64,000 bases of DNA from Sorangium aterium. Lineage in GTDB: Bacteria; Myxococcota_A; Polyangia; Polyangiales; Polyangiaceae. Made by a program: the position numbers and the translations under genes. Shown in pieces: positions 51,935 through 64,000 of the stretch. Every line of letters begins with the position of its first letter. Position 1 is the stretch's first letter. The DNA lies in contig NZ_JAQNDK010000006.1 of the NCBI RefSeq assembly GCF_028368935.1, positions 124,001 through 188,000 on the forward strand. The letters are read 5' to 3'. Below the pieces are notes generated by a model. It had not been told where the DNA came from. It made no database searches and worked only from the letters and a program-made list of their open reading frames with translations.

Positions 51935-52258
51935 ATGGGATCCGACAAGAATACCCCGGGAACTGTTTTGCTTTCGAACGACGATCTCTACTACTTGCTG
52001 TATCGAGCCGCGCAAGAGTCGAGTAGTTTGGACGGGTTCAACAACAACGTCACGAGTCTCCTCGACCAGAAACTGGGGTCAGGCGCCTACATTCTCACCC
52101 TCGCCGTCAGCCAGGGGGGGCAAAACGGAGTGCTCTACAAGAAAAACCCCAGGCTCGATAGCAGCGCCTCCTGGTCGGGAGATACCGGGAGTCTGCCAGG
52201 GTCCGTGAGCAATTACGGCGTCTATTGCTTCGTGGCGTGGGGCAGCGCTCCCGGATGA
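51935..52258 (+). CDS. Small protein of unknown family, paralogue A
   Basis: A 107-aa protein, MGSDKNTPGTVLL..., with GGAGAG 9 bp before the ATG. No signal peptide or membrane helix. It aligns along its length with the product of 52564-52935: DDLYYLLYRAAQESS, SLLDQKLGSGAYI, NPRL and WSGDTGSLPG all have clear partners. I do not recognise the family. A beta-rich, possibly lectin- or toxin-like small domain is conceivable, but nothing in the sequence proves it. It follows the gene-fragment zone and precedes gene B by 305 bp. Confidence 0.7.
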   Translation: MGSDKNTPGTVLLSNDDLYYLLYRAAQESSSLDGFNNNVTSLLDQKLGSGAYILTLAVSQGGQNGVLYKKNPRLDSSASWSGDTGSLPGSVSNYGVYCFVAWGSAPG

Positions 52259-52563: not shown

Positions 52564-52935
52564 ATGAATACGCCGATGAAAGCCCAAACCTCCATCACGG
52601 AAGCGGTCAAGACCAGGACGCTCGAGCAAGTCGTCGCAGCGGGGAGATCCGGTGCGTTTGCGGGAGATGATCTCTACTGGATCTTGTATCGAGCAGCGAC
52701 AGAGGCATCGGATACGAATGGGTTCTACTTCGGGATCATCAGTCTGCTCGACCAGGCTCTGGGGCAAAACGCCTACATTTTCGCCTGGACAATCAGCAAG
52801 AACGGATACAGTGGCTTTATCGATAATACTAATCCCCGGCTCCCCAATGGCATCCAGTGGGGTGGAGACGCCGGGGTCCTGCCAGGAGTCGCGAGCGCTT
52901 ACGCCGTCTCTGTCTTCGTGTTCTGGGGCGGCTGA
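52564..52935 (+). CDS. Small protein of unknown family, paralogue B
   Basis: A 123-aa protein, 16 residues longer than A because of an N-terminal extension (MNTPMKAQTSITEAVKTR). The shared core includes DDLYWILYRAATEAS, SLLDQALGQNAYIF, NPRLPN and WGGDAGVLPG, ending FVFWGG. Pairs differ mostly at surface-type residues. No signal peptide. A tandem duplication with conserved leaders indicates selection for dosage or for diverged partners. Function unknown. A GC hairpin follows the stop. Confidence 0.75.
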   Translation: MNTPMKAQTSITEAVKTRTLEQVVAAGRSGAFAGDDLYWILYRAATEASDTNGFYFGIISLLDQALGQNAYIFAWTISKNGYSGFIDNTNPRLPNGIQWGGDAGVLPGVASAYAVSVFVFWGG

Positions 52936-53194: not shown

Positions 53195-55021
53195 ATGAAC
53201 CGAAACAGACTCATGCATGGTTGGCATATTTCAGGACACGTATTGGTGGGTGCGGGGGCGTTCTTCGCGATGTCGTGTAAAGGAGCCGAGACGCAGCGCC
53301 CGGCGGCATCGACCTCCGCGGCGGTCCAGGCGCCGCGCCCGGAGAGGAAAGACTCCTGCGAGACCCAGCCCTCGTACATCAACGTCGCGGCCTGCGCGCC
53401 GCCCACGGATGTCGCTGCAGGCGCGGACCTCAACCAGGCTGCCACCTTCGCCTGGCAGGAGTTCATCTCGCTCAACTGGCCCGCGGTGAAGCAAACCTTC
53501 ACGTCAGGTACGCGCGGACAGCTCGATGCCAATGCCCGGCTCGACGCCATCAACGACAAGAATGGCACCACGCCCACGTGGATGACCTACCGCCACAAAA
53601 TCGAGGTCTTCCCGGGTGGGGGCAACAAGGACGGCGTGAAGCCGTACAACTACGACGATAAGCCGCAATACATCTACGATTCGACGAAGGTGGGGGGGGA
53701 TGGCACGATTCCCTTGTGCGACGGCGGGGACCCCCAGAACCTCAAGGACACCGAGGGCGCGCTCTTCCTCAACGCGGACGAGGCCACCCAGATCGGGCAG
53801 AACTCCATGTTCGCGGGCGTCGTCGAGGCGGCGAAGGTCGACCCGAACGACCCCGCGGCGTCCCAGATCGTGTTCATGGTGAAGGCCAATCCCATTTACG
53901 TCAAGTACGTGCAGCAAACCGGCTGGTTCACGGGCATTCCAAGTGATATCGAGACGAAGACCAAGCAGTACGTGCAGGACAACAAGAAAGACCCCGAGGC
54001 GGGGAGCACGGACCTGGTCAGCCTCCCCCTCAATACCATTCTCACCAAGTCGGCTTGGCGCCGCGCGGTCCCGGGGGACGAGCAGACCCACCTGGTCAGG
54101 CCCTTGCGCCGGTACAAGCTGAACGGGTCGAACTACTGCTACGCGGTCAACTATTACACGCTGGTCGCGCTCCACATCATCCAGAAGACCAATTCGGCGC
54201 CGCAGTTCATCTATGCCTCCTTCGAGGCCGCCGACAACATCCTCACCCAGGACGGGCAACGGGCCGAGGACGACAGCGGCCGCATCACGAGCCAGGGCCA
54301 GCCTGCCCGTTACCCCGCGATCACCTCCGTTCCCGCCACCGGCTGGAACAAGGCGTCGCGCCAGAAAATCACGGCGGCCTCCGACGTCTGCACGCCCGGC
54401 TCGAGCCTCTACTACGAGAACAACCCCAAAAATAAGAACATCCCCCAGGCCAAGGTGTGCGTCCGCGCGCGGCTGTCCCCGATCCCCCAGACCATCATCC
54501 GAGCGAACGACGCGGCGCACCAAGCCTTGGACAGCTACGCCGAACAGAATGGCTCCCCCAAGAGCGTCCTCAGGTACTACAAGCTCGTGAACGTCCAGCA
54601 TGTCCCCGCCACGAAGGAGGCCATGGCGGAGTACACAGGTGGCGGTGGTGTCGAGCCCGCGACCTACTACATGGCCAACATGGTCCTCGAGACCAGCCAG
54701 GTCTTGCAGCATTTCTCCGGCGGCTTCGCGGGCAACCCGGATCCGAACAGCTCGAATGACCCGGCCGACGGCACCATCACCGACTATGCGTACGGCGGCG
54801 ACACGCCTCAGGTGGGGCCGAACCTCTCCGTCAACGGCACGAACTACCTCATGGGCGGCTGCATGGGTTGCCACGGCCAGGCCCAGAAGGAAGGTGGCGG
54901 GTTCAGCTTCGCGCTCGACGGGATCGCCAAGGGCTTCAGCGCCAAGCCCGAGTACCCTCGCGGACCGGGTAACCAAAACGGATTCGACGACTTCGCCGCC
55001 CGCTGGCAAAGGCGACGCTGA
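53195..55021 (+). CDS. c-type cytochrome lipoprotein 1
   Basis: A 608-aa exported protein. The ATG at 53195 gives MNRNRLMHGWHISGHVLVGAG, a lipoprotein signal ending FFAMSC|K; longer upstream frames lack a ribosome site. A single haem-c motif CMGCH lies near residue 570. The large central part is of a type seen in myxobacterial periplasmic cytochromes and has no known enzyme motif. It is 19 bp upstream of a second cytochrome gene, then 14 bp to a molybdenum hydroxylase, so it probably belongs to that electron-transfer chain. Confidence 0.83.
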   Translation: MNRNRLMHGWHISGHVLVGAGAFFAMSCKGAETQRPAASTSAAVQAPRPERKDSCETQPSYINVAACAPPTDVAAGADLNQAATFAWQEFISLNWPAVKQTFTSGTRGQLDANARLDAINDKNGTTPTWMTYRHKIEVFPGGGNKDGVKPYNYDDKPQYIYDSTKVGGDGTIPLCDGGDPQNLKDTEGALFLNADEATQIGQNSMFAGVVEAAKVDPNDPAASQIVFMVKANPIYVKYVQQTGWFTGIPSDIETKTKQYVQDNKKDPEAGSTDLVSLPLNTILTKSAWRRAVPGDEQTHLVRPLRRYKLNGSNYCYAVNYYTLVALHIIQKTNSAPQFIYASFEAADNILTQDGQRAEDDSGRITSQGQPARYPAITSVPATGWNKASRQKITAASDVCTPGSSLYYENNPKNKNIPQAKVCVRARLSPIPQTIIRANDAAHQALDSYAEQNGSPKSVLRYYKLVNVQHVPATKEAMAEYTGGGGVEPATYYMANMVLETSQVLQHFSGGFAGNPDPNSSNDPADGTITDYAYGGDTPQVGPNLSVNGTNYLMGGCMGCHGQAQKEGGGFSFALDGIAKGFSAKPEYPRGPGNQNGFDDFAARWQRRR

Positions 55022-55040
55022 TCACCGAGGAGCTCTTCCG

Positions 55041-56468
55041 ATGAAAAATTACGCTTTCGCGTCCGTGCTCCTCACCATCGCGGCGGGGGTATCCCTCGGC
55101 GCCTGTGGGAATGGGAATCAAGCCGGCCCCAAAGTCGTCGACGGAAAGGGCGAGCCCGAGGAGCTCGCCACGGCAAGGTCGCTCGCCTTCCGGGACGCGG
55201 TCAAGGCTCCCCCCGCGGGCTGGTCGGGGCCCGTGTTCAAGCTGAGCCACGACTATCCGAAGGAAAAGCCCACGTGCGACTCGCCTTGGCTGCGCCGCAA
55301 CGTGGATTTCAGCGGCAAGAGCTCCACGTGGAACGCGGATTGGCAGGGCTACGTGCAGGACATCGTCAATTACGTCAAAGAGGGCCAGGAGCCGAATCTC
55401 CCCGATGACCCCGGCTGGCGTATTCAGGTGTCCGGCCAAACCCGCTGGTTCAACGTCCCCTGGATGGCCTACGACGGCGAGCGGGGCCGCGAGTTCGTGC
55501 ATGGCTTGACCAACGAGCTGTCGACCGCGGAAACGGCCTTCATCGGGCGAGGCAGCGGCAAGCACATCCTGCCGGGCGCCAGGAAGAGCGGCGGTGACGA
55601 CCCGCTCTTCGAGACCTGGTCGATCGGCTACTACAATCCCTGCGGCGCGTGGTCGATCGGGCAGCAGTGGCCCGAGAGCGGCGCGCCGGCCACCTACGAG
55701 GAGAACGGGCGGCTCCTGGCTCGCGGCATGCCGTTCCCGGAGGGCACCGTCGTCGTCAAGCTGCTCAATACCACGGCGACCGAAAAGGACGTGCCCTACA
55801 TGAAGGGCTCCACCAACTGGCAAGCCAACGGCCACAAGCAGACGGGGCCGCGCACCTACGCGACGTGCGAGCGCGAGGTGCGCGAGGTCCACCTCGTGCA
55901 AATGGACCTCGCGGTCGTCGACACGCGCTCGCCCACGCGCTGGGTCTACAGCACGCTCGTCTACGACGGCACCCTGCCCGGCGCCACGATCTGGGATCGC
56001 ATGCGGCCGCTCGGCGTGCAGTGGGGCAACGACCCCCAGACCTTCCCCGCGGTGCCCCTGGCCAACAGCAAGCCGCTGAGCCAGTCGGTCGCGGCCCCCG
56101 TCAACATCCACGAGCACTACGGTTGCTTCAAGCGCCTCGCCGGCGACGTGGACCAGAGCAACTCGAGCTGCACGTCGTGCCACATGGGCGCCTACGCGGC
56201 CGCGCCGGGGGTGGAGATCAAGCCGGGCGAGAACGTACCGCCGATCTTCAAATTCGACGGGATATGCGACACCTACAACGCGACGAACGCGAGTTATTTC
56301 GCTAACTATGCCTATCCGAGCCCGTTCCCTGGCAGCAGCGGCGATGTCGCGGCAGCGATCCCGCTGGACACCTCGCTGCAGCTCCAGGTGGCCTTCGCCC
56401 AGTACGCCTACTTCAAGAACAGCGACCCGAAAGTCGTACCCAAGTCCACCTGCCCACCGGCGCGCTGA
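55041..56468 (+). CDS. c-type cytochrome lipoprotein 2
   Basis: A 475-aa exported protein. The ATG at 55041 has GAGGAG upstream and starts a lipoprotein signal ending VSLGAC|G. One haem-c motif, CTSCHMG, lies near residue 380. No other family motif is recognised; short aromatic blocks (WRIQVSGQTRWFN, IGYYNPCGAWSIGQQWP) suggest a folded beta-rich domain before the haem region. It sits in an operon between cytochrome 1 and the Mo hydroxylase gene and is the most direct candidate for the hydroxylase electron acceptor. The hydroxylase itself has no export signal, which leaves a membrane-crossing step unexplained. Confidence 0.85.
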   Translation: MKNYAFASVLLTIAAGVSLGACGNGNQAGPKVVDGKGEPEELATARSLAFRDAVKAPPAGWSGPVFKLSHDYPKEKPTCDSPWLRRNVDFSGKSSTWNADWQGYVQDIVNYVKEGQEPNLPDDPGWRIQVSGQTRWFNVPWMAYDGERGREFVHGLTNELSTAETAFIGRGSGKHILPGARKSGGDDPLFETWSIGYYNPCGAWSIGQQWPESGAPATYEENGRLLARGMPFPEGTVVVKLLNTTATEKDVPYMKGSTNWQANGHKQTGPRTYATCEREVREVHLVQMDLAVVDTRSPTRWVYSTLVYDGTLPGATIWDRMRPLGVQWGNDPQTFPAVPLANSKPLSQSVAAPVNIHEHYGCFKRLAGDVDQSNSSCTSCHMGAYAAAPGVEIKPGENVPPIFKFDGICDTYNATNASYFANYAYPSPFPGSSGDVAAAIPLDTSLQLQVAFAQYAYFKNSDPKVVPKSTCPPAR

Positions 56469-56482
56469 GCGCGAGGACCACC

Positions 56483-60799
<4,317 letters not shown>

Positions 60800-60803
60800 G
60801 CAG

Positions 60804-60827
60804 AGCGGGCCGCGGTAGCGGCCCGCT
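60804..60827. terminator. Perfect hairpin after the Mo hydroxylase
   Basis: A 10-bp perfect stem AGCGGGCCGC / GCGGCCCGCT with a 4-nt loop, 5 bp past the stop and with no T-tract. It may attenuate rather than end transcription, since xdhC follows on the same strand after 111 bp. Confidence 0.6.
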
Positions 60828-60910
60828 CCTCGAGCCGCGAGCATCGCCACGATGACCCTTGCCTCCATGCCGCGCTGTTCGCGTGGTCAATCCACTCGTG
60901 GAGCACGACG

Positions 60911-62260
60911 ATGACCCCCTCTGATCCCAGGTTCTACGTCACGCTCCTCGAGATGCTCGGATCCGAACGCAGCTTCGCCGTCGCGACGGTCGTGAACGTG
61001 CGCGGCTCCGCGTCAGGCAAGCCCGGGGCCAAGGCGATCTTCGACGAGCACGGCCATAACCTCCACGGCTGGGTGGGGGGCGGCTGCGTCGAGCGCTTCA
61101 CCGGCGAGCAGGCGGTCGCGGCGATCGCCGAGGGTCGACCGCGGCTCGTCGTGGCCGATCTCGACGACGAGGTGCTCGGCCTGGGCATGCCGTGCGGTGG
61201 CGTGATGGACATCTACATCGAGCCGGTGCGCCCGCGGCCACCGCTGTTCGTTGCCGGTGATGGGCCGAGCGCGAAGGCCGTCGTCACGCTGGGCGCGCGG
61301 CTCGGCTTTCGGGTCGTGGCCCATGCGCCGGGGCTCGTCGATGACTGGCAGGACCCGATGGTGTCCGTGCGTGACGCCGCCTACGAGGTCTGTGATCCCC
61401 CTCGAGGGGCGCGGATGGTGGTGGCCTCCCGCCATCGTGGCGACGAGGCGGCGCTCGCGGCCGGGCTGCGAGCCGACGCGAGCTACCTCGGCCTGGTCGC
61501 CAATCGCACCCGCGCGGCGGCGACCCGCGCGCGGCTCGCCGAGGTGGCCGCGCCGGAGCGCGTCGCGGCCATCCGCGCTCCCGCGGGCCTTGATCTCGGA
61601 GGGCGCCGCCCCGTCGAGATCGCCATGAGCGTGCTCGCCGAGATCCTGGCCGAGGAGCGCGGGGTCGACGTGGATGCCCTCGAGCGAGCGGCCGGAGCGG
61701 GGCCCGCCGCGTGTCCCTCCCCGGGCTGGTCGAGCCCCGAGCTCGTGGTGGTCGGACACAGCCGAATTGCCGAGGCGCTCGCTGACCTCGCCGCGATGCT
61801 AGAATGGCCGATCACCCTGCATGCCGTCGCGCCCGCACCCCATCAGCGCGCAGGCTACCCCGCGACGGTCCGCTGGGTGAGCGAGGATCCCGGCTTTCAA
61901 CGGCTGCCGGCGTCCCCGAGCACGGCCGTGGTGGTGGCCTCGCACCACAAGGGGGACGAGCGGGCCATCGCGGCGGCGCTCGGGGCCGGAGCGCCTTACG
62001 TAGGTCTGGTTGCCAGCGCCAGCCGGTCGCGGTTGATCCGCGAGCGGCTCCCGGGTTCGCTCGCGGATACGCCCGGCGTGCTGCGAGCCCCGGCCGGGCT
62101 GGCCATCGGGGCGCGCACGCCTGCCGAGATCGCGTTGAGCATCGTGGTCGAGATCCTTGCCTTGCTGCACGGCCGCAGCGGCCGCGCGCTGACTGCGCTC
62201 GAGGAGCTCCCGGCCCGGCGCGGGGGCCCCTGCCTCGATGCGGGCGTAGGCGAGCGATGA
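60911..62260 (+). CDS. xdhC: XdhC-like molybdenum cofactor chaperone with extra Rossmann unit
   Basis: A 449-aa protein. The N-terminal XdhC/CoxI region includes VNVRGSASGKPGAK, GGCVE and a MPCGG motif. A first XdhC_C Rossmann domain (PLFVAGDGPSAKAVVTLGARLGF, about 120-250) and then a second related unit (ELVVVGHSRIAEALADLAAML and VVVASHHKGDERAIAAAL, about 275-430) follow. XdhC of Rhodobacter binds Moco, shields its sulfido ligand and passes it to xanthine dehydrogenase; a single Rossmann unit is usual. The stop overlaps the next ATG by 4 bp (ATGA), so it is coupled to the cysteine desulfurase. Confidence 0.87.
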   Translation: MTPSDPRFYVTLLEMLGSERSFAVATVVNVRGSASGKPGAKAIFDEHGHNLHGWVGGGCVERFTGEQAVAAIAEGRPRLVVADLDDEVLGLGMPCGGVMDIYIEPVRPRPPLFVAGDGPSAKAVVTLGARLGFRVVAHAPGLVDDWQDPMVSVRDAAYEVCDPPRGARMVVASRHRGDEAALAAGLRADASYLGLVANRTRAAATRARLAEVAAPERVAAIRAPAGLDLGGRRPVEIAMSVLAEILAEERGVDVDALERAAGAGPAACPSPGWSSPELVVVGHSRIAEALADLAAMLEWPITLHAVAPAPHQRAGYPATVRWVSEDPGFQRLPASPSTAVVVASHHKGDERAIAAALGAGAPYVGLVASASRSRLIRERLPGSLADTPGVLRAPAGLAIGARTPAEIALSIVVEILALLHGRSGRALTALEELPARRGGPCLDAGVGER

Positions 62261-63477
62261 GCACGGCCGTGGCAGCGCGCAGCGACTTCCCCGCGCTTGC
62301 GGCCCCGGGCTTCGTCTACCTCGACAACGCGTCGACCACCCAGGCGCCGCTCGCGGTGATCGAGGCCATCGCGGCCTTTTACCGAAACGGCCACGCCAAC
62401 GTAGGCCGCGGCGTGTACGGGCTCGCCGAACGCACGACGGCGGCCTACGAGGCGGCGCGGGCACAGGTGGCGCGCTTCTTGGGCTTGCGCCATCCGAGCG
62501 AGCTGGTGTTCACGTCCGGCGCAACCGACGCGATCAACCTGGTGGTCGAGGGCTGGGCGCGGCGACGCGTGACCGCGGGGAGCAGGGTCCTCACGACCGT
62601 CCTCGAGCACCACGCCAACCTACTGCCCTGGCAGCGCCTCACCCGCCAGCACGGAGCCCGGCTCGAAACGATCGACATCGACGAAGAGGGGCGGCTCGAT
62701 CTCGATGACGCCGCGGCCAAGCTCCCGGGGGCGACGGTGCTGGCCGTGACCGCCATCTCCAACGTGCTCGGCGTTCGCATGCCGCTGCCGGCCCTCGCGG
62801 CGCTGGCCCGCGAGCACGGCGTGTGCATGGTCGTCGACGCGGCCCAGGCCGTGGGGCACGAGCCAGTCGACTTCGCGGCGATCGGCTGCGACTTCATGGC
62901 GCTGTCGGCCCACAAGATGCTAGGGCCCACGGGCATCGGCGTGCTGGCGGCGCGTCGCGAGCGGCTGCTCGAGCTCGAGCCGGTGCGGGTGGGCGGCGGG
63001 ATGGTCCGGGAGGTCGCCGCCCTGGGGAGCGACGGGCCGTCGCGATGGCGCGAGCCGCCGTGGGGCCTCGAGGCCGGAACCCCGCACATCGCCGGGGCCA
63101 TCGGCATGGCCGCCGCTGCCGAGTACCTCGCAGCCCTTGGCCTACCGCGGATCGCCGCGGCCGAGGAGAGCTTGGTCCGCGCGCTGCTCGACGGCTTGCG
63201 CGAGCTCGAGGGCATCCGGGTGCTGGGGCCCGGGCCCGGTGCGGCGCGCGCGGGGATCGTGTCCTTCACATTTGCGAGCCACCACCCCCACGACGTGGCG
63301 GGGCTACTGGGCGAGCTGGGTGTGGCCGTGCGCGCGGGCCATCACTGTGCCGTGCCACTCATGCGACACCTCGGAGCGCCATCGACCGTACGGGTAAGCC
63401 TGGGGCCGTACAACGACGAGGGCGACGTCACGGCCCTGCTCGCGGGCCTGCGGCACGTCACGCGGGTGCTCGCGTGA
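62257..63477 (+). CDS. SufS-like class V aminotransferase, probable cysteine desulfurase
   Basis: A 406-aa PLP enzyme. The Schiff-base Lys is Lys220 in SAHKMLGPTGIG, and the sulfur-accepting Cys is Cys364 in GHHCAVPLMRHLG, the SufS-type spacing and context. YLDNASTTQAPLAV and HANVGRG are typical N-terminal blocks. It is coupled to xdhC by a 4-bp overlap and to the next gene by another. In Rhodobacter capsulatus a NifS-type desulfurase (NifS4) sulfurates Moco on XdhC, so the context suggests that role here rather than general Fe-S assembly. A dual role is possible. Confidence 0.88.
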   Translation: MSTAVAARSDFPALAAPGFVYLDNASTTQAPLAVIEAIAAFYRNGHANVGRGVYGLAERTTAAYEAARAQVARFLGLRHPSELVFTSGATDAINLVVEGWARRRVTAGSRVLTTVLEHHANLLPWQRLTRQHGARLETIDIDEEGRLDLDDAAAKLPGATVLAVTAISNVLGVRMPLPALAALAREHGVCMVVDAAQAVGHEPVDFAAIGCDFMALSAHKMLGPTGIGVLAARRERLLELEPVRVGGGMVREVAALGSDGPSRWREPPWGLEAGTPHIAGAIGMAAAAEYLAALGLPRIAAAEESLVRALLDGLRELEGIRVLGPGPGAARAGIVSFTFASHHPHDVAGLLGELGVAVRAGHHCAVPLMRHLGAPSTVRVSLGPYNDEGDVTALLAGLRHVTRVLA

Positions 63478-64000
63478 GCCAGCATCCCCGGAGCCTCTAC
63501 CGCGAGGCCTTGCTCTGGCTGGCTCGCGCCCCCGACCACCGCGGGCCGATGCCCCACGCCGATCGGCGCGGGCGGGCGGTCAATGCCCTGTGTGGCGACG
63601 AGCTGCTGGCCGAGCTCACCCTCGGGCAGGACGATCGCATCGGCGAGCTGCGGTGCACCGTCCGCGGCTGCGCCGTAGCCGAGGCCTCGGCCCACCTCTT
63701 GGCCGAGCTCGTGCCCGGAGCGGATCACCAGCAGATTGCGGGTTGGCAAGCGCGATTCGAGGCGGCGCTCACTGGCGCTGCCCTGCCTGCCGAGCTCGCG
63801 CCCCTCGAGCCGCTGCTGGCCCTGCGCGAGCGGCCCAGCCGGCATGGCTGCGCGCTGCTTCCCTGGCACGCACTCGCCGAAGCGCTGAGGCCGGTGGGCG
63901 TCGCGCCATCGCGCGATGATCTCGGGGAGGCGGCCCAGCCCCCGGCCGGAGCCGCATCGATCGGGCCCGTCATTTCGACTGTAGGTCGTCAGAATCGCTA
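63474..64000 (+). CDS. SufU/IscU-like sulfur-acceptor protein, 3' end outside window
   Basis: The GTG at 63474 overlaps the desulfurase stop (GTGA). The first 140 residues show the SufU/IscU pattern: NALCGDEL (Cys40, Asp42), RGCAVAEAS (Cys66) and HGCALLPWHAL (Cys126). SufU proteins accept sulfur from SufS on a Zn-bound cysteine. From about residue 140 the frame continues into a low-complexity tail, open at the window edge, so the end is not known. An extra Cys61 sits near the second motif. Pairing with SufS and XdhC makes a dedicated sulfur relay the best reading. Confidence 0.75.
   Translation, partial: MSQHPRSLYREALLWLARAPDHRGPMPHADRRGRAVNALCGDELLAELTLGQDDRIGELRCTVRGCAVAEASAHLLAELVPGADHQQIAGWQARFEAALTGAALPAELAPLEPLLALRERPSRHGCALLPWHALAEALRPVGVAPSRDDLGEAAQPPAGAASIGPVISTVGRQNR

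What the first reader, a model, noticed from the sequence alone, without database searches (positions are those of the whole stretch)
53195..64000. A Mo-hydroxylase island with its own cytochromes and sulfur relay
Two c-type cytochrome lipoproteins (CMGCH, CTSCH), a fused 1438-aa Mo hydroxylase, XdhC, a SufS-like desulfurase and a SufU-like protein lie in line on one strand, with gaps of 19, 14 and 111 bp and then two 4-bp overlaps. Known: XdhC with a NifS-type desulfurase sulfurates Moco in Rhodobacter. Inference: SufU would act as intermediate sulfur carrier, and the cytochromes would drain electrons from the FAD or Fe-S domain. I do not know of a described set of this composition.
Basis: partly seen in the sequence, partly recalled or inferred. 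Interest (0 to 1): 0.8.

Follow-up and report, generated by a model that had tools for sequence, protein, structure and literature searches.

The report
Mo-hydroxylase operon with borrowed sulfur relay
A bacterium of the class Polyangia carries, in one gene row, a large molybdenum enzyme with two unusual heme proteins and the sulfur-handing half of a lost iron-sulfur assembly machine, and the same half turns up beside molybdenum-enzyme genes in many of its relatives, which suggests it has been reused to arm the molybdenum cofactor.

Summary
In detail: six co-directional genes with the stated gaps (SufU stops one base past the window). The set is two modules joined at a 24-bp hairpin (60804).

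Module 1 is CytA-CytB-fused Mo hydroxylase. It recurs (hydroxylase 59%, CytB 66%, CytA distant), without XdhC/SufS/SufU, on a conjugative Methylobacterium plasmid; CytB genes also flank fused hydroxylases in other Myxococcota and an Opitutaceae MAG. The hydroxylase keeps its Mo base and Fe-S cysteines but lacks xanthine-binding residues. CytA and CytB resemble cytochrome P460/c'-beta (weak evidence) and are exported, while the hydroxylase has no export signal; 'cytochromes drain electrons' is therefore weakly supported.

Module 2 is XdhC-SufS-SufU. This genome has no SufB/D. Of 40 SufS-SufU pairs in the class, 19 sit by sufB and never by XdhC/Mo hydroxylase, 19 sit by XdhC/Mo hydroxylase and never by sufB, 2 by neither; 39 of 40 Acidobacteriota SufU loci are sufB-linked. 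Zn-relay residues are conserved. Most likely SufS-SufU sulfurates the molybdenum cofactor on XdhC. No published description was found in the library searched. New variant of a known kind.

The parts
53195..55021 (+). CytA: 608-aa exported mono-heme c protein (CMGCH at 556-560), widespread family without a Pfam/NCBIfam name, P460/c'-beta-like by fold (weak)
55041..56468 (+). CytB: 475-aa mono-heme c lipoprotein (lipobox LGAC, CTSCH at 377-381), divergent Cytochrome_P460 relative
56483..60799 (+). Fused 1438-aa molybdo-iron-sulfur-flavin hydroxylase (2x[2Fe-2S], FAD, Moco), xanthine-oxidase family, not a xanthine dehydrogenase by substrate residues
60804..60827 (+). Perfect 10-bp inverted repeat with 4-nt loop in the 111-bp gap that separates the two modules; no T-run
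60911..62260 (+). XdhC-family Moco chaperone (XdhC_CoxI plus two XdhC_C Rossmann stretches, 449 aa)
62257..63477 (+). SufS-type cysteine desulfurase with catalytic Cys364 and the SufU-docking His345/Asp346
63474..64000 (+). SufU-type zinc sulfurtransferase (Cys40, Asp42, Cys66, Cys126); reading frame ends at 64001, one base beyond the window

Best explanation
The island joins two modules. Module 1 is a cytosolic aldehyde-oxidase/xanthine-dehydrogenase-like Mo hydroxylase of unknown substrate with two exported P460-like heme proteins; it moves between phyla as a unit. Module 2 is a Moco maturation relay: SufS strips sulfur from cysteine, zinc-SufU takes the persulfide on Cys40, and the sulfur ends as the equatorial Mo=S ligand of Moco held by XdhC, which then loads the hydroxylase. 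In Polyangia the SufS-SufU half of the SUF machine was kept, or recruited again, for this after the SufBCD scaffold was lost. Shown here: gene order, families, residues, linkage pattern, absence of SufB/D. Inferred: sulfur flow from SufS to SufU to XdhC-Moco, and any joint action of heme proteins and hydroxylase.
For: xdhC, sufS and sufU overlap by 4 bp. The genome has no SUFBD core and has a separate IscU with an IscS-like gene nearby. 19 of 40 SufS-SufU pairs in Polyangia lie by XdhC/Mo hydroxylase and none of those by sufB; 19 lie by sufB and none of those by XdhC/Mo hydroxylase (Fisher p 1.6e-9, not corrected for relatedness). xdhC is usually within 7-600 bp of sufS. Nearly all Mo-linked genomes lack SufB/D; one (G265) has a SUF locus and a second, Mo-linked SufS-SufU pair. 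Neighbours include MoCo-binding subunits (10), XdhC and MobA/MocA-like NTP transferases (5) among 78 genes scanned. Control: 39 of 40 Acidobacteriota SufU loci are sufB-linked. The equivalents of SufU Cys40, Asp42, Cys67, Cys131 and SufS His354, Cys373, needed for the relay in M. tuberculosis (PMC10216065), are kept in essentially all Mo-linked pairs. XdhC plus a desulfurase sulfurating Moco is established for R. capsulatus (PMC2997495). Module 1: Methylobacterium plasmid cytB-hydroxylase-cytA; CytB next to fused hydroxylases in six further loci.
Against: No direct evidence of sulfur transfer to XdhC or Moco. In R. capsulatus the desulfurase acts on XdhC without a carrier, so SufU might only activate SufS. 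SufU scores under the NCBIfam SufU cut-off (75.0 vs 92.5) and SufS just under its own (452.8 vs 475.1). The window's SufS is a long branch that does not group firmly with the other Mo-linked SufS. Of 11 other fused hydroxylase copies only one (L133) has XdhC next to it and none has SufS-SufU, so module 1 does not need a local module 2.
Confidence: 0.6

Rival explanations
1. SufS-SufU make Fe-S clusters for the hydroxylase: SufU acts as a local scaffold or sulfur donor for its two [2Fe-2S] clusters, and nearness to xdhC reflects the same target enzyme rather than Moco sulfuration.
For: The hydroxylase needs two [2Fe-2S] clusters and its cluster cysteines are present; SufU belongs to the IscU/NifU fold family.
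Against: The genome has its own IscU and no SufB/D scaffold. SufU zinc ligands are conserved, as in sulfurtransferase SufU. In Mo-linked loci xdhC is the nearest and most constant partner, in several loci without any Mo-hydroxylase subunit found within reach.
Confidence: 0.2
2. One reading: the two c-type cytochromes take electrons from the FAD or Fe-S domain of the hydroxylase, making a respiratory Mo dehydrogenase like periplasmic AldFGH or NicAB (these two named from general knowledge).
For: CytB-hydroxylase adjacency is conserved across phyla. The FAD domain lacks the acidic NAD loop of xanthine dehydrogenase (RPENA instead of RREDD) and scores best against aldehyde oxidase, so the acceptor is probably not NAD.
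Against: CytA and CytB have export signals; none of 12 fused hydroxylases examined shows a Tat or Sec signal by eye. P460/c'-beta hemes are ligand-binding, not classic electron carriers (PMC11928373). Each protein has a single heme motif.
Confidence: 0.2
3. The neighbourhood is not functional: SufS-SufU is a general sulfur relay for the cell (for example tRNA thiolation or dithiolene formation), and its place by xdhC is an inherited accident.
For: Loci share ancestry, so the count is not independent; the SufS tree needs only 2-3 label changes.
Against: Two different arrangements (divergent and co-directional) keep xdhC next to sufS across several families, and one genome holds a Mo-linked pair beside a separate SUF locus.
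Confidence: 0.12

Closest known systems
Rhodobacter capsulatus XdhC-NifS4 Moco sulfuration (PMC2997495)
   Same: XdhC-family chaperone plus cysteine desulfurase serving a xanthine-oxidase-family enzyme
   Different: No SufU carrier described there; here desulfurase and carrier genes overlap xdhC
SUF sulfur relay SufS-SufU (M. tuberculosis, PMC10216065; Myxococcus xanthus risR-sufBCDSUT, PMC9973013)
   Same: Same two proteins with the zinc-swap residues
   Different: No SufB/D in the genome; linked to the Moco chaperone instead
Eukaryotic aldehyde oxidase / xanthine dehydrogenase
   Same: Fused Fe-S, FAD, Moco order on one chain; aldehyde-oxidase-like FAD loop; catalytic Glu kept
   Different: E802 to T, R880 to C, F914 to M; bacterial; gene paired with heme proteins
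Cytochrome P460 / cytochrome c'-beta superfamily (PMC11928373)
   Same: C-terminal CXXCH after a large beta-sheet; weak profile and fold match
   Different: About three to four times longer (475-608 aa against about 140-190)
Selenium-dependent Mo hydroxylase loci with SelD and a NifS-like protein (PMC2276186)
   Same: Desulfurase-type enzyme and XdhC-related protein near a Mo hydroxylase
   Different: Hydroxylase scores far under the Se-dependent model (230.6 vs 830.45); no SufU in that description

Membership tests
Xanthine-oxidase family Mo hydroxylase | Two [2Fe-2S] domains with their Cys, FAD domain, two MoCo-binding domains | tested here: met
   Pfam over cut-off; cluster cysteines kept
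Xanthine-oxidase family Mo hydroxylase | Catalytic Glu (bovine E1261) | tested here: met
   GEPP motif in the window and all ten aligned relatives
Xanthine dehydrogenase | Purine-binding E802, R880, F914 | tested here: not met
   T, C and M in the alignment to rat XDH; NCBIfam XDH cut-offs not reached
XdhC Moco chaperone | XdhC_CoxI and XdhC_C domains over gathering score | tested here: met
XdhC Moco chaperone | Moco binding and transfer to the enzyme | not testable with these tools
   needs protein work
SufU zinc sulfurtransferase | Acceptor Cys40 and zinc ligands Asp42, Cys67, Cys131 (Mtb numbering) | tested here: met
SufU zinc sulfurtransferase | NCBIfam TIGR01994 equivalog cut-off | tested here: not met
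   75.0 bits, cut-off 92.5; still its best family, so called SufU-like
SufS, SufU-partner type | His354 and Asp355 docking residues, catalytic Cys373 | tested here: met
   subfamily cut-off TIGR01979 narrowly missed (452.8 vs 475.1)
SUF Fe-S assembly system | SufB/SufD scaffold | tested here: not met
   No SUFBD_core in the genome
Cytochrome P460/c'-beta | Fold | tested here: inconclusive
   CytA: top 17 rows all P460/c'-beta at Z 4.9-5.9, next row 3.5, but Z under 8 and no Foldseek E under 0.001; CytB model poor
Cytochrome P460/c'-beta | PF16694 gathering score | tested here: inconclusive
   11 of 17 CytB-family members match, best E 5e-7; the window's CytB only 9.4 bits against 27
Cytochrome P460/c'-beta | Heme-Lys cross-link (P460) or its absence (c'-beta) | not testable with these tools
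   Both families hold an invariant Lys after a GT motif (K285 in CytA, K240 in CytB); equivalence to P460 Lys70 unproven

The most novel reading that the evidence does not exclude
After loss of the SufBCD scaffold, Polyangia turned the zinc SufS-SufU pair into a dedicated Moco sulfurase that feeds XdhC, so SufU has a second, Fe-S-independent job; and the window's hydroxylase works with exported P460-like heme enzymes on a substrate not yet described.
Probability: 0.45. Interest if true: 0.75.

Novelty: new variant of a known kind. Interest (0 to 1): 0.62.

Why it matters
How bacterial xanthine-oxidase-family enzymes get their essential Mo=S ligand is known in detail for a system with a lone desulfurase. 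A conserved XdhC-SufS-SufU set in genomes that lack SufB/D makes a testable case that SufU can hand sulfur to a cofactor other than Fe-S clusters, and shows an Fe-S machine being taken apart and reused. The mobile hydroxylase-heme protein unit points to an undescribed oxidation pathway shared across phyla.

Tried and rejected
CytA as a Mo-hydroxylase partner in general: rejected; 78 CytA loci across many phyla show no linked fused hydroxylase, and only two Pseudomonas loci have a Mo-hydroxylase Fe-S subunit several kb away. Xanthine dehydrogenase: rejected on substrate residues. The nucleoside hydrolase next to one Hyalangium hydroxylase copy and near CytA/CytB in some Pseudomonas hinted at purines but is not seen in the other hydroxylase loci. 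PDB sequence searches with CytA, the CytB profile and two CytB relatives gave nothing. Foldseek with CytA gave no match under E 0.001. AlphaFold of CytB failed (pLDDT 40). Direct CytA-CytB homology: the profile match is confined to about 70 columns, so only suggestive. Plasmid search with SufU found only weak hits, the one opened being a normal SUF operon. Paper searches: no paper holds XdhC and SufU together; related searches gave none whose listing describes this set. Selenium donor idea: selD was not searched in this genome.

Full report
Observation. The window is G000:C6:124001-188000 of a 13.5-Mb genome. The downstream sequence shows that sufU stops at 64001 and that the next called genes are on the other strand, so the row ends there. 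Domain content was confirmed with Pfam and NCBIfam; the two cytochromes match no named family over cut-off.

Maturation module. The genome has no SUFBD core, one ordinary IscU elsewhere with an IscS-like gene nearby, and three XdhC genes. I searched 280 genomes of the class with the window's SufU, took neighbourhoods and asked what lies near. Among 40 SufS-SufU pairs, 19 have sufB close by and no XdhC or Mo hydroxylase; 19, the window included, have XdhC and/or Mo hydroxylase and no sufB; 2 have neither. One of those two lies beside a type 2A encapsulin shell gene, so it is probably the encapsulated desulfurase. Fisher p is 1.6e-9, uncorrected for shared ancestry. A SUFBD survey of the same sample found 50 of 280 genomes positive; nearly all genomes with a Mo-linked pair are negative, and G265 has both a SUF locus and a separate Mo-linked pair. 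Neighbours of Mo-linked pairs include MoCo-binding subunits, XdhC, MobA/MocA-like transferases and CoxG. As an outside control, 39 of 40 Acidobacteriota SufU loci are sufB-linked; one of those also has XdhC nearby, and the fortieth is cut by a contig end. The SufS tree clusters Mo-linked rows (2-3 changes against 13-16 in shuffles), but the window's SufS is a long branch of unsure place, so a separate recruitment here is possible.

Residues. M. tuberculosis SufU takes persulfide on Cys40; zinc is held by Asp42 and further Cys and swaps to SufS His354 on docking (PMC10216065). The window and nearly all Mo-linked pairs keep these residues. R. capsulatus XdhC holds Moco while the desulfurase NifS4 sulfurates it (PMC2997495). 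Putting these together gives the SufS to SufU to XdhC-Moco relay; the last step is inference.

Hydroxylase. The [2Fe-2S] cysteines and the catalytic Glu are present; purine-binding residues are replaced (T, C, M for E802, R880, F914), and the FAD domain is closest to aldehyde oxidase, with the xanthine-dehydrogenase NAD loop missing. The substrate is unknown; an aldehyde or N-heterocycle is the family default. No export signal is seen in the window's protein or its relatives.

Heme proteins. CytA belongs to a family spread over Pseudomonadota, Bacteroidota, Acidobacteriota, Myxococcota and others, mostly unlinked to Mo hydroxylase. Its AlphaFold model is good (pLDDT 85); the best structural neighbours are uniformly cytochrome P460 and c'-beta (Z 4.9-5.9 against 3.5 for the next row), below the level that proves a relation. 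CytB-family members match the Pfam P460 model (11 of 17, best 5e-7), and one is annotated as cytochrome P460 family. That superfamily binds ligands such as NO and hydroxylamine (PMC11928373). CytB sits next to fused hydroxylases in six other loci of Myxococcia and Opitutaceae, while four fused-hydroxylase loci lack it (L133, L235, L237, L252). On Methylobacterium indicum plasmid pVL1_1, CytB (66%), hydroxylase (59%, full length) and a CytA-family protein are consecutive, with no XdhC, SufS or SufU in the region shown. Hence module 1 is a mobile unit, and the hairpin at 60804 marks the seam to module 2.

Verdict. The relay is the stronger and more general finding; the heme-hydroxylase unit is real but its mechanism is open. 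Limits: the linkage count is not corrected for phylogeny; all six genes together were seen only here; no biochemical evidence exists; absence of literature refers only to the open library searched.

Noticed in passing
window 51935-52258 and 52564-52935 (+): Two similar small proteins (107 and 123 aa) without Pfam match lie just upstream of cytA.
   Followed up: partly
L005 8748-16947 (C6, about 8-16 kb past the island): Recombinase-like and transposase-like genes, including a pair that looks like IS21 istA/istB, lie downstream of the island; the region may be mobile.
   Followed up: no
L185 93-3864: A SufS-like protein and SufU next to a type 2A encapsulin shell gene and a FeS_assembly_P gene, without SufB or XdhC nearby.
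   Followed up: partly
L253 1454-10842: Fused hydroxylase followed by CytB, a multicopper oxidase with a Tat-like signal, and a second CytB on one strand.
   Followed up: partly
L237 8175-13454: A nucleoside hydrolase gene ends 3 bp upstream of a second, more distant fused hydroxylase in Hyalangium; similar hydrolases lie near CytA/CytB in some Pseudomonas.
   Followed up: partly
L235, L236, L238, L250-L254: These fused hydroxylases carry an insertion of roughly 50-90 residues after the first [2Fe-2S] domain that the window's enzyme lacks.
   Followed up: no
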